DNA of 56,862 nt from Pseudomonadota bacterium (GTDB lineage: Bacteria > Pseudomonadota > Gammaproteobacteria > Steroidobacterales > Steroidobacteraceae), in NCBI GenBank assembly GCA_947459825.1, contig CANHFH010000006.1:1-56862 (forward strand), read 5' to 3'. This document shows positions 1,527 to 56,355 of this stretch, one piece after another; the stretch's first letter is position 1, and the number at the start of each line of letters is the position of its first letter. The position numbers and the translations under genes were made by a program. The notes beneath the pieces were generated by a model. The model was not told the DNA's origin and did no database searches. It worked only from the letters and a program-made list of their open reading frames with translations.

Positions 1527-2563
1527 CGCTCGGCCCCCTGATGGTCGACCTCGAGGGCACGGTGCTGCAGCCCGAAGAGCGCGAGATCCTGCAGCACCCG
1601 CTGGTGGGCAGCGTGATCCTGTTCGCGCGCAACTATTCGGATCCCGAGCAGCTCTCGCGGCTCGTCTCCGACATCCACGCCGCGCGCTCGCCGGCGCTGG
1701 TGGTGGGCGTCGACCACGAGGGCGGCCGCGTGCAGCGTTTCCGCGAGGGCTTCTCGCGTCTGCCGCCGGCGCGACGCATCGGACACGAGCATGACGCCGA
1801 CGCGCGGGCCGGGCTCGCGCTCGCCCGCGAGATGGGTTGGCTGATGGCGGCGGAGCTGCGTGCGCACGGCGTCGACCTGTCGTTCGCGCCCTGCGTCGAC
1901 CTCGACTACGGGGTGAGCGAGGTGATCGGTGAGCGCGCCTTCCACCCGCGGCCTGAGGTGGTCGCTGAACTCGCCGTGGCCTACCAGACCGGCATGCGGG
2001 CGGCCGGCATGGCGGCCACCGCCAAACATTTCCCGGGTCACGGTGCCGTGGTCGCCGACTCGCACCATGCGCTGCCGGTCGACCGTCGCTCGCTCATCGA
2101 CCTCGGACCGGACATCGCACCGTACCGCCTGCTGATCGCCAACGGGCTTGCCGGCGTGATGGTCGCGCATGTGCTCTATCCGGAGGTCGACGATGTGCCT
2201 GCGAGCGCCTCGCAGCGCTGGATCCGCGGCGTGCTGCGCGGCGACCTCGGGTTCCAGGGAGTGGTGTTCGCGGACGACCTGTCGATGGCGGGCGCCGCAG
2301 CCGTGGGCGGCATCGTCGAGCGCGCGACGCGCGCGCTCGCGGCGGGCTGCGATGTGCTGCCGGTCTGCAACCATCGACCGAGCGTGGTGGCCTTGTTGGA
2401 CGGGTGGCAGGCGGCACCGGACCCGGTCGCCGCGCTGCGTCGGGTCCGACTGCGCGGCAAGGCCCATCCGGGACCCACGGAGCTGCGCGCCTCGGAGCGC
2501 TGGCAGTCCGCCCAACAGGCCCTGGCCCGCTGCGCGGCGCCGCCCGATCTCAGGCTCACCTAG
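1523..2563 (+). CDS. nagZ: beta-N-acetylhexosaminidase NagZ (GH3)
   Basis: Cytoplasmic peptidoglycan-recycling enzyme that removes N-acetylglucosamine from anhydro-muropeptides. At 346 residues it has normal NagZ size. The GH3 signature KHFPGHG is at about residues 168-174, followed by the DSH of the histidine loop (179-181), and the aspartate nucleophile lies in FADDLSM (about 251-252). VDHEGGRVQR near residue 64 is also typical. The ATG overlaps the rlmD stop by 4 bases. The gene converges on csiV. Confidence 0.95.
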   Translation: MTLGPLMVDLEGTVLQPEEREILQHPLVGSVILFARNYSDPEQLSRLVSDIHAARSPALVVGVDHEGGRVQRFREGFSRLPPARRIGHEHDADARAGLALAREMGWLMAAELRAHGVDLSFAPCVDLDYGVSEVIGERAFHPRPEVVAELAVAYQTGMRAAGMAATAKHFPGHGAVVADSHHALPVDRRSLIDLGPDIAPYRLLIANGLAGVMVAHVLYPEVDDVPASASQRWIRGVLRGDLGFQGVVFADDLSMAGAAAVGGIVERATRALAAGCDVLPVCNHRPSVVALLDGWQAAPDPVAALRRVRLRGKAHPGPTELRASERWQSAQQALARCAAPPDLRLT

Positions 2564-52799: not shown

Positions 52800-53189
52800 A
52801 TGCGCGAGCTGCGTTGGCGGTGGTTCTGGCTGGCGTCGGGGACGGCGCTCGTGCTGCTCGTCACCTGGCTCTGCCTGCGTCCGTCGGCCGGCACCGCACA
52901 GTGGTTTCCGCACGCTGACAAGTTCCAGCACGCCGCCGCGTTCCTGGGCCTCGGGGGTCTGCTGCTCGCGTTGTTCGAACGGCGTCACTACGCTGTCGCC
53001 TGCATCGTGCTGCTCGTGTTCGGCGGTGCCATCGAGGTGGCGCAATACCTGATGCCCTACGGGCGCTCGGCGGAGTGGGCCGACCTCGCGGCCGACGGTC
53101 TCGGGGTCGTGCTCGCCGCGCTCGTCTCGCTCGCGATCCAGGAGTCCTGGCTGCAGCGCATCGAGCGCTGGCTGGGTGCCCGTGGCTGA
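52800..53189 (+). CDS. VanZ-like small membrane protein
   Basis: 129 residues with four hydrophobic helices (about 8-26, 43-60, 63-82, 98-115). The pattern ADKFQHAAAFLGLGGLL, AIEVAQYLMPYGRSAEWADLAADGLGVVLA is the VanZ-like family signature (HxxAF, E-x-x-Q, R-x-x-x-xxDxxxN/D-x-x-G). Physiological role unknown. It sits between lolA and rarA, overlapping the rarA start by 14 bases. Confidence 0.82.
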   Translation: MRELRWRWFWLASGTALVLLVTWLCLRPSAGTAQWFPHADKFQHAAAFLGLGGLLLALFERRHYAVACIVLLVFGGAIEVAQYLMPYGRSAEWADLAADGLGVVLAALVSLAIQESWLQRIERWLGARG

Positions 53190-54558
53190 GCAGGCCGAGA
53201 TGGGCCTCGCGCCGGCAGCGGAGCGCCCGCTGGCCGACCGGATGCGCCCACGCAGCATCGCCGACATCGTCGGCCAACCGCAGGTGCTCGGACCCGGCAA
53301 ACCGCTGCGCGTCGCGCTCGAAACCGGCCGACTGCACTCGATGCTGCTGTGGGGGCCGCCCGGGTCGGGCAAGACCACGCTCGCGCGCCTCGTCGCGCAA
53401 GGCTCCGATGCGCAGTTCATCGCGCTGTCGGCGGTGATGGCCGGCATCAAGGATGTGCGCGCGGCGGTGGAGAAGGCGCAGGCCGAGCGTGCCGCGACCG
53501 GGCGACGCACGGTGCTGTTCCTCGACGAGGTGCATCGCTTCAACAAGACGCAGCAGGACACCTTCCTGCCGTACATCGAGGACGGCACGCTCGTGTTCAT
53601 CGGCGCGACCACCGAGAACCCGTCCTTCGAGGTGGTGAGCGCGTTGCTGTCGCGCGCGCGTGTGTATGTGCTGCGCGCGCTGCAGCCCGCCGACATCGCC
53701 GAGATCCTGCGCCGTGCGCTCGCCGACCGCGAGCGGGGTTTGGGCGGGCGCGGTCCGGGCGGATCGGACCTGCAGGTCGACGACGCCGCGCTCGAACTGC
53801 TCGCGCGCGCGGCCGACGGCGACGGTCGCCGTGCGCTCAACATGCTCGAGATCGCCGCCGATCTCGCCGTCGACGGCCGCATCGGCGTCGAGCAGGCGAT
53901 GGAGATCGCGGGCGGTACCCGCCGACGCTTCGACAAGGGCGGCGAGCAGTTCTACGACCAGATGTCGGCGCTGCACAAGAGCGTGCGCGGCACCGACCCG
54001 GACGCCGCGCTCTACTGGTTCTGCCGCATGCTCGACGGCGGTTGCGACCCGGGCTATCTCGCGCGGCGCATCGTGCGCATGGCGGTCGAGGACATCGGGC
54101 TCGCCGATCCGCGCGGCCTGCAGCTCGCCATCGACGCTTGGACGGCCTACGACCGGCTCGGCAGCCCCGAGGGTGAACTCGCGCTCGCCAACGCCGTCGT
54201 CTACCTCGCGTGTGCGCCGAAGAGCAACGCGGTCTACGCGGGCTACAACGAGGTCAACGCCGATGTGCGCGAGTACGGCACGCTCGAGGTGCCGATGCAC
54301 CTGCGCAACGCACCGACCGCGCTCATGAAGGACCTCGGCTACGGCAAGGGCTACCGCTATGCCCATGCGGAGCCCGATGCCTACGCTGCCGGTGAGCGCT
54401 ATCTGCCCGAGGGCCTGCCAGAGCGGCAGTACTACCGGCCCGCGCCGCGGGGGCTCGAGATCCGCATCGCCGAGGCGCTGGCGCGGCTGCGCGGAGGCAA
54501 AGGCCCGGCGGGCGCCGTGGGCGGCCCGCACGGTGCCGGCGGAGGGGACGAACCGTGA
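53176..54558 (+). CDS. rarA: replication-associated recombination protein A (MgsA/RarA)
   Basis: AAA+ ATPase that acts at stalled replication forks, clamp-loader-like. 460 residues from GTG 53176 (GTG 53182 is in frame). ADRMRPRSIADIVGQ at the start, Walker A GPPGSGKTTLARL, Walker B LFLDEVHRFNKTQQD, sensor GATTENPSFEV, and the tetramerisation region with DGGCDPGYLARRIVRMAVEDIGLADP. The stop overlaps the crcB GTG. Confidence 0.96.
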   Translation: MPVAEQAEMGLAPAAERPLADRMRPRSIADIVGQPQVLGPGKPLRVALETGRLHSMLLWGPPGSGKTTLARLVAQGSDAQFIALSAVMAGIKDVRAAVEKAQAERAATGRRTVLFLDEVHRFNKTQQDTFLPYIEDGTLVFIGATTENPSFEVVSALLSRARVYVLRALQPADIAEILRRALADRERGLGGRGPGGSDLQVDDAALELLARAADGDGRRALNMLEIAADLAVDGRIGVEQAMEIAGGTRRRFDKGGEQFYDQMSALHKSVRGTDPDAALYWFCRMLDGGCDPGYLARRIVRMAVEDIGLADPRGLQLAIDAWTAYDRLGSPEGELALANAVVYLACAPKSNAVYAGYNEVNADVREYGTLEVPMHLRNAPTALMKDLGYGKGYRYAHAEPDAYAAGERYLPEGLPERQYYRPAPRGLEIRIAEALARLRGGKGPAGAVGGPHGAGGGDEP

Positions 54559-54935
54559 ATGCCTGGCTCGCGGTGGCGCTCGGCAGCGCGCTCGGCGGCG
54601 TGGCCCGCTACGGCATCGCGCGTCTCTGGCCGTGGGTGCCGGGCGGCTGGCCGATGGCTACAATGACCGTCAATGTGCTCGGCAGCTTCGCCATCGGCCT
54701 CCTGTCGGTGGTGGTCGCCGGGCGCGCGGGCGGCGCCGAGACCGCACGGCTCTTCTGGATGACCGGCGTGCTCGGCGGCTTCACCACCTACTCGGCGTTC
54801 GCGCTCGAGACGGTGACGCTGGCCGGTGCGGGCGAGGCGATGCGCGCTGCAGCCTAAGTGGCCGCGACCGTGCTGGTCTGCCTCGTCGCGGCCTTCGCCG
54901 GCCGTGCCCTCGGGATGCTCATCGCCGTCGACTGA
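54555..54935 (+). pseudogene. crcB: fluoride channel CrcB interrupted by an in-frame TAA
   Basis: CrcB/Fluc is a small four-helix fluoride exporter of about 120-130 residues. From GTG 54555 (overlapping the rarA stop) the first 100 residues are normal: ALGSALGGVARYGIAR, NVLGSFAIGLL and the channel motif GGFTTYSAFALE. A TAA at 54855-54857 then ends the frame, but the same frame continues through 25 codons with a clear fourth helix (VLVCLVAAFAGRALGML) to TGA 54933-54935. The stop lies in the loop before helix 4. It may be a nonsense mutation, or a split gene: a GTG directly follows the TAA. Confidence 0.85.
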
Positions 54936-56243
<1,308 letters not shown>

Positions 56244-56265: not shown

Positions 56266-56355
56266 GGAGAGGTGGCAGAGCGGTTTAATGCATCGGTCTT
56301 GAAAACCGACGGCCCTTCACGGGGCCCGTGAGTTCGAATCTCACCCTCTCCGCCA
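56266..56355 (+). tRNA. tRNA-Ser(UGA)
   Basis: 90 bases with encoded CCA. Acceptor stem GGAGAGG/CCTCTCC with discriminator G, anticodon stem TCGGT/ACCGA and loop CTTGAAA giving anticodon TGA at 56300-56302. The variable arm is long (GGCCC...GGGCC region) as in tRNA-Ser, and the T loop is TTCGAAT. Directly after serS. Its 3' end borders a foreign-looking segment. Confidence 0.97.

What the first reader, a model, noticed from the sequence alone, without database searches (positions are those of the whole stretch)
54555..54935. crcB split by an in-frame TAA before its last transmembrane helix
The reading frame is intact on both sides of TAA 54855-54857, and the part after it encodes a plausible fourth helix, then a stop at 54933. 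CrcB needs four helices to form the dimeric fluoride channel. It is either a recent nonsense mutation (rest of the frame not yet decayed) or a gene in two pieces re-initiating at the GTG right after TAA.
Basis: seen in the sequence. Interest (0 to 1): 0.6.

Follow-up and report, generated by a model that had tools for sequence, protein, structure and literature searches.

The report
Fluoride channel gene crcB, prematurely stopped
The only fluoride-channel gene found in this bacterial genome carries a stop codon just where its last membrane helix begins, very probably a recent loss of function, and some related species have lost or damaged theirs in other ways.

Summary
crcB (start GTG 54555) is cut by TAA at 54855-54857; the frame stays open and homologous to the stop at 54933. 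All 12 genus relatives with an intact crcB between rarA and serS encode Tyr at this codon and run on for 21-28 residues; the three sister genomes have TAT and the same 126-residue length. This Tyr aligns with Tyr104 of Fluc-Bpe, a TM4 pore residue, so the product lacks TM4 from that residue on. The GTG after TAA is only the old Val codon. No second crcB, CLC or fluoride riboswitch was found in the 97.3%-complete genome. Best reading: a recent nonsense mutation inactivating the only recognised fluoride exporter. A consensus error or minority-strain allele cannot be excluded without reads. Wider result: of 19 genus genomes whose state could be read, 5 lack an intact recognised exporter, by different lesions: nonsense (G000), erosion (G002), a 96-bp in-frame deletion in a second crcB type (G001), absence (G009), and absence together with rarA (G022).

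The parts
54555..54857 (+). crcB, truncated open reading frame: GTG start to premature TAA, 100 aa, helices 1-3
   Evidence: Pfam CRCB 75.3 bits on residues 5-99
54855..54857 (+). in-frame TAA at the codon that encodes Tyr in 12 of 12 intact genus orthologues of this locus (Fluc-Bpe Tyr104 position)
54858..54935 (+). unread remainder of crcB: 25 codons of TM4 and the original stop TGA
53176..54558 (+). rarA, upstream neighbour; its stop overlaps the crcB start by 4 bases (GTGA)
   Evidence: ORF; the gene name is recalled. The rarA-crcB-serS order is seen in 12 other genus genomes with intact crcB
54966..56243 (+). serS (seryl-tRNA synthetase), downstream neighbour
   Evidence: ORF; the gene name is recalled; used to find the locus in relatives

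Best explanation
This is the standard dual-topology fluoride channel gene (crcB/Fluc), inactivated by a recent change of a Tyr codon to TAA at the start of transmembrane helix 4. Shown: the stop, the open and homologous tail, the sense codon in relatives, and no other recognised exporter gene found in the assembly. Inferred: translation ends after helix 3; the 100-residue product lacks the pore tyrosine and the rest of TM4, where most polar-track residues lie, and cannot form the double-barrelled dimer pore; the cell therefore has no recognised fluoride exporter. It fits a pattern in which several species of this genus have separately lost or damaged crcB.
For: Sense codon TAT (Tyr) and a 126-aa protein in all three sister genomes G004, G008, G020; Tyr in 12 of 12 intact orthologues at the locus in the genus (10 TAT, 2 TAC), followed by 21-28 residues, against 25 in the ghost tail. 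The position aligns with Fluc-Bpe Tyr104 (5a40, my count along the printed alignment); passages of PMC8315801 say that Tyr104 is a TM4 pore residue and that Ser, His or Ile there gives fluxes of only about 100 ions/s or less. PMC5636608 passages: most polar-track residues come from TM4. One crcB in the own genome, no CLC, no fluoride riboswitch found (in one search only 150 of 496 candidates were scored). The stop is the only one inside a gene body among 76 compared ORF matches. Other damaged or absent copies in the genus: G002 remnant with intact sister G003; G001 type-2 crcB with a 96-bp in-frame deletion between CCACGTTC repeats while G007 and G023 are intact; no crcB between rarA and serS in G009, and neither rarA nor crcB before serS in G022.
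Against: The genome is a fragmented assembly (200 contigs), so the base may be a consensus error or a minority allele. Codon differences give no clear sign of relaxed selection: in codons 1-100 non-synonymous/synonymous counts are 12/18, 11/20 and 11/17 for G000 against G004, G008, G020, and 5/8, 5/11 and 0/11 among the sisters; only the comparisons with the 0/11 pair reach P 0.017-0.041 in uncorrected Fisher tests, the others do not. So little besides the stop itself indicates lost function. About 3% of the genome is missing and could hold another exporter. Nothing experimental was available.
Confidence: 0.75

Rival explanations
1. The TAA is an assembly or consensus artefact, or an allele of only some strains in the sampled population; the species as a whole has an intact crcB.
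For: Single base difference in a codon that is TAT or TAC in the relatives; 200-contig assembly; no reads; the rest of the gene shows no clear decay.
Against: It is the only gene-body nonsense codon in 76 ORF matches and 27,531 codons compared with sisters, so the assembly is not generally error-ridden in the part examined. No homopolymer at the site. Genus relatives show that crcB is repeatedly lost or damaged, though those are assemblies too.
Confidence: 0.18
2. Programmed or habitual readthrough of TAA, or TAA reassigned to Tyr, gives a full-length channel.
For: The tail is open and in frame. TAA is a rare terminator here: 1 of 37 window genes.
Against: No other in-frame stop inside a gene body in 76 compared ORF matches; TAA does end one of 37 genes; relatives have a plain Tyr codon and so no conserved recoding site.
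Confidence: 0.04
3. A gene in two pieces: the ribosome re-initiates at the GTG after TAA and a 25-residue TM4 peptide assembles with the 100-residue part.
For: GTG directly follows TAA.
Against: The GTG is the inherited Val codon, GTC in the sisters; no ribosome-binding stretch at a fitting distance (by eye); no 3+1 split among 50 matches in 47 other genomes.
Confidence: 0.03

Closest known systems
CrcB/Fluc homodimeric fluoride channel (Pfam PF02537; Fluc-Bpe 5a40, 5a43)
   Same: Sequence family, length up to the stop, TM3 Phe-containing stretch (GGFTTYSAFALE), Tyr position in TM4 in relatives
   Different: This copy stops at the TM4 Tyr codon; 25 further codons remain in the DNA but are outside the open reading frame
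rarA-crcB-serS gene cluster of the same genus (G003, G004, G006, G008, G010, G012, G014, G015, G016, G017, G019, G020)
   Same: Same neighbours and order
   Different: All 12 are open past the codon and have Tyr there
Damaged crcB copies in the genus: G002 (remnant) and G001 (type 2, deletion into TM4)
   Same: Loss of an intact channel gene in the same genus
   Different: G002 has lost the start and much of the middle and has shifted frames; G001 has a 96-bp in-frame deletion in a different crcB type elsewhere in the genome

Membership tests
CrcB/Fluc fluoride channel (PF02537) | Sequence match to the family profile above its gathering score | tested here: met
   75.3 bits for the 100-aa part, cut-off 32.9
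CrcB/Fluc fluoride channel (PF02537) | Four transmembrane helices in one chain | tested here: not met
   The open reading frame ends at the TM4 Tyr codon and covers the profile only to position 85 of 103; judged from alignment to solved channels, no helix prediction was run
CrcB/Fluc fluoride channel (PF02537) | TM4 pore tyrosine (Fluc-Bpe Tyr104 position; conserved in 55% of homodimeric Flucs per PMC8315801) | tested here: not met
   TAA at that codon; Tyr in 12 of 12 intact genus orthologues at the locus
CrcB/Fluc fluoride channel (PF02537) | Fluoride conductance as a dual-topology dimer | not testable with these tools
   Needs expression and a flux or growth assay
Pseudogene (nonsense mutant of crcB) | In-frame stop where close orthologues have a sense codon, with homologous sequence continuing after it | tested here: met
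Pseudogene (nonsense mutant of crcB) | Relaxed selection on the rest of the gene | tested here: inconclusive
   Too few codon differences; most Fisher comparisons not significant, three uncorrected ones with the 0/11 sister pair at P 0.017-0.041
Pseudogene (nonsense mutant of crcB) | Present in reads or in independent genomes of the species | not testable with these tools
   No reads; one genome per species is held
CLC-F fluoride antiporter as a replacement | CLC gene with the signatures GNNLI/GMGLI, GREGT/V, GEVTP (PMC11139923 passage) | tested here: not met
   No CLC in G000. G009 and G022 have CLCs, but with GSGIP and GREGP (read by eye)

The most novel reading that the evidence does not exclude
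A genus of gammaproteobacteria with genomes of ordinary size (about 1.4-4.3 Mb) is repeatedly discarding fluoride export: nonsense, erosion, a deletion into TM4, clean absence and absence together with rarA in different species, leaving at least five species without any recognised intact exporter. They would then either live where fluoride stress is negligible or use an unrecognised fluoride tolerance system.
Probability: 0.3. Interest if true: 0.5.

Novelty: new member of a known kind. Interest (0 to 1): 0.33.

Why it matters
By itself this is a nonsense pseudogene, an ordinary event. It gains weight because it appears to be the cell's only recognised fluoride exporter and because relatives show other lesions of the same function. 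[quoted passage not shown] A genus with genomes of ordinary size that keeps losing it would be a natural test of when fluoride export becomes dispensable. How these species live was not established here.

Tried and rejected
Fluoride riboswitch: none in the window at Rfam gathering scores, none in the own genome with RF01734 (150 of 496 candidates scored). Replacement by a CLC-F exporter: 3 of 36 genomes have a CLC (the call covered 23 of the 24 genus genomes, not G023); none in G000; the CLCs of G009 and G022 carry GSGIP and GREGP, read by eye; G044's was not read. Genome-scale decay: the forward background test found no other gene-body nonsense in 76 ORF matches, a sample of 456,862 of 2,597,247 bases of this genome and 308,047 bases of the sisters. 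The reverse test (82 ORF matches, 30,057 codons, 24 stops in relatives, 9 passing the filter) was dominated by what look like antisense or over-extended reading frames; I did not sort it gene by gene and rest nothing on it. Relaxed selection on the tail: non-synonymous/synonymous codon differences after the stop are G000-G004 4/8, G000-G008 6/7, G000-G020 6/8, and among intact sisters 3/9, 2/5, 3/9; the G000 ratios are higher, but none of nine Fisher comparisons is significant (P 0.41-1). Literature: one search on Fluc structure (87 papers, 20 listed); 'crcB + pseudogene + fluoride' (9 papers); 'crcB + premature stop + fluoride' (4 papers); a four-term exporter-loss search (30 papers, 15 listed). 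In the listings I saw no title about crcB nonsense pseudogenes; PMC8018945, opened in passages, concerns a crcB missing from an assembly, not a stop in it. One further search returned 0 papers. PMC11077948 and PMC5743806 were read in passages only and gave nothing on crcB nonsense; of PMC13104614 I saw abstract and outline. This does not show that such cases are unpublished. No structure prediction was run.

Full report
OBSERVATION. The window reads GCC TAA GTG at 54852-54860, in frame with the GTG start at 54555, which overlaps the end of rarA (GTGA). After TAA the frame runs on for 25 codons to TGA at 54933. Pfam CRCB matches the 100-aa part at 75.3 bits up to profile position 85, and the part with the stop read as X at 85.4 bits up to position 102 of 103; the 25-residue tail alone gives no match. 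The whole-genome search gives the same place with one TAA inside.

WHAT THE CODON WAS. The gene lies between rarA and serS, an order shared by relatives. In the three nearest genomes, G004, G008 and G020, the orthologue is 126 aa with no indel against the window, and the codon is TAT (Tyr) in all three. Across the genus, 12 of 12 intact copies at this locus encode Tyr (10 TAT, 2 TAC) and continue for 21-28 residues; the eroded G002 copy and G033 (same family) also show Tyr. In the alignment to Fluc-Bpe (5a40) it falls on the Tyr that I count as residue 104 from the printed coordinates. [quoted passage not shown] Passages of PMC5636608 say that most polar-track residues come from TM4. A chain ending at this codon lacks that residue and the rest of the helix.

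IS IT A NATURAL SHORT FORM OR A SPLIT GENE? Of 60 genomes searched (G000 included), 48 have a match; outside G000 there are 50 matches in 47 genomes, and 48 of the 50 reach profile position 102 or 103 without a stop. The two exceptions are G001 (2-75) and G002 (25-80, three stops), both damaged copies (below). The GTG after TAA is the inherited Val codon (GTC in the sisters), and by eye I see no Shine-Dalgarno-like stretch at a usable distance before it. A split or naturally short gene is therefore unlikely.

IS IT AN ARTEFACT? No reads are held, so this stays open. As a background I compared ORFs of at least 100 aa from 308,047 bases of three sister genomes with 456,862 bases of this genome: 76 non-overlapping best matches (taken as genes, not curated), 27,531 codons, 9 in-frame stops in G000. 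Four have at least 60% identity within 25 residues on both sides; three of these lie at column 93 of 588 in a stretch before the likely true start (seen), column 6 of 318, and column 455 of 459. The crcB stop is the only one inside a gene body. The five that fail the filter lie within the first 67 columns. The reverse comparison gave 24 stops, 9 passing the filter, mostly in what look like spurious frames, and was not sorted. Thirty-seven window genes end in TGA 30 times, TAG 6 times and TAA once, so a reassigned TAA is not indicated. A minority-strain allele remains possible.

SELECTION. Non-synonymous/synonymous codon differences for codons 1-100 are 12/18, 11/20 and 11/17 (G000 against G004, G008, G020) and 5/8, 5/11, 0/11 among the sisters; for the tail 4/8, 6/7, 6/8 and 3/9, 2/5, 3/9. 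Fisher tests are not significant except, uncorrected, three against the 0/11 pair (P 0.017-0.041). The counts neither show nor exclude relaxed selection, which fits a recent event or no loss at all.

CONSEQUENCE. The own genome (2,597,247 bases, 200 contigs, 97.3% complete, 1.74% contamination) gave no other CRCB match, no CLC and no fluoride riboswitch (in one search 150 of 496 candidates were scored). If the stop is real and not read through, the species has no recognised fluoride exporter. That is inference from gene content; about 3% of the genome is missing.

THE GENUS. The genus set holds 24 genomes; 17 have a CRCB match. Twelve have an intact copy between rarA and serS: G003, G004, G006, G008, G010, G012, G014, G015, G016, G017, G019, G020. 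G000 has the nonsense codon. G002 (86% complete, 6% contamination) has a remnant at the locus with no start, a missing middle and shifted frames. G001, G007 and G023 have no room for crcB between rarA and serS (the two matches lie 38 positions apart) and carry a second, more distant crcB type elsewhere; it is intact in G007 and G023, but in G001 a 96-bp in-frame deletion between two CCACGTTC repeats removes 32 codons from the end of TM3 into TM4. Seven genomes have no match. In G009 rarA and serS are adjacent. In G022 (83% complete) serS directly follows a VanZ-like frame (name recalled), rarA gives only paralogue-level matches, and no crcB remnant was found with the G014 protein. In G005, G011, G013, G018 and G021 (77-86% complete) the locus could not be read and I draw nothing from them. 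So 5 of 19 readable genomes lack an intact recognised exporter: G000, G001, G002, G009, G022. The CLCs present in G009 and G022 have GSGIP and GREGP, not the CLC-F signatures given in PMC11139923; [quoted passage not shown]

INDEPENDENCE. In a rarA+serS protein tree (FastTree; G022 by serS alone), G000 is sister to the intact G008/G004/G020 (support 1.000 for the four, 0.997 for the three), G002 to intact G003 (1.000), G022 to intact G014 (0.973), G001 groups with G007 and G023 (1.000), and G009 is sister to that trio (0.988). Nonsense in G000, erosion in G002, loss at the locus on the G009+trio stem, loss in G022 and deletion in G001 are then at least five events, if each assembly is right. 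Other nodes are weak (0.26-0.69), but the relations used here are not among them.

IDENTITY OF THE ORGANISM. 

VERDICT. A real-looking, recent nonsense mutation in an ordinary crcB, ordinary in kind. The more interesting point is the repeated loss of fluoride export in a genus with genomes of ordinary size, which these tools can suggest but not prove.

Noticed in passing
L036 (G002:C48) 1500-1840: Heavily eroded crcB remnant between rarA and serS, with a missing middle and mixed frames, while sister genome G003 has an intact copy.
   Followed up: yes
L035 (G001:C22) 1768-2103, minus strand: Second crcB type with a 96-bp in-frame deletion between CCACGTTC repeats that removes the end of TM3 and part of TM4; intact in G007 and G023.
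   Followed up: yes
L057 (G022:C5) 1074-1501: rarA and crcB are both missing between a VanZ-like frame and serS; rarA gives only paralogue-level matches in this 83%-complete genome.
   Followed up: partly
L064 and L065 (G022, G009): Both genomes that lack any crcB match at a readable locus carry a CLC gene with chloride-type motifs, followed by a similar 380-aa membrane-protein frame (62.5% identical); no other of the 23 genus genomes searched has a CLC.
   Followed up: partly
window 56266-56352: A tRNA gene (Rfam RF00005, 60.2 bits) shortly after serS near the contig end; its anticodon was not read.
   Followed up: no
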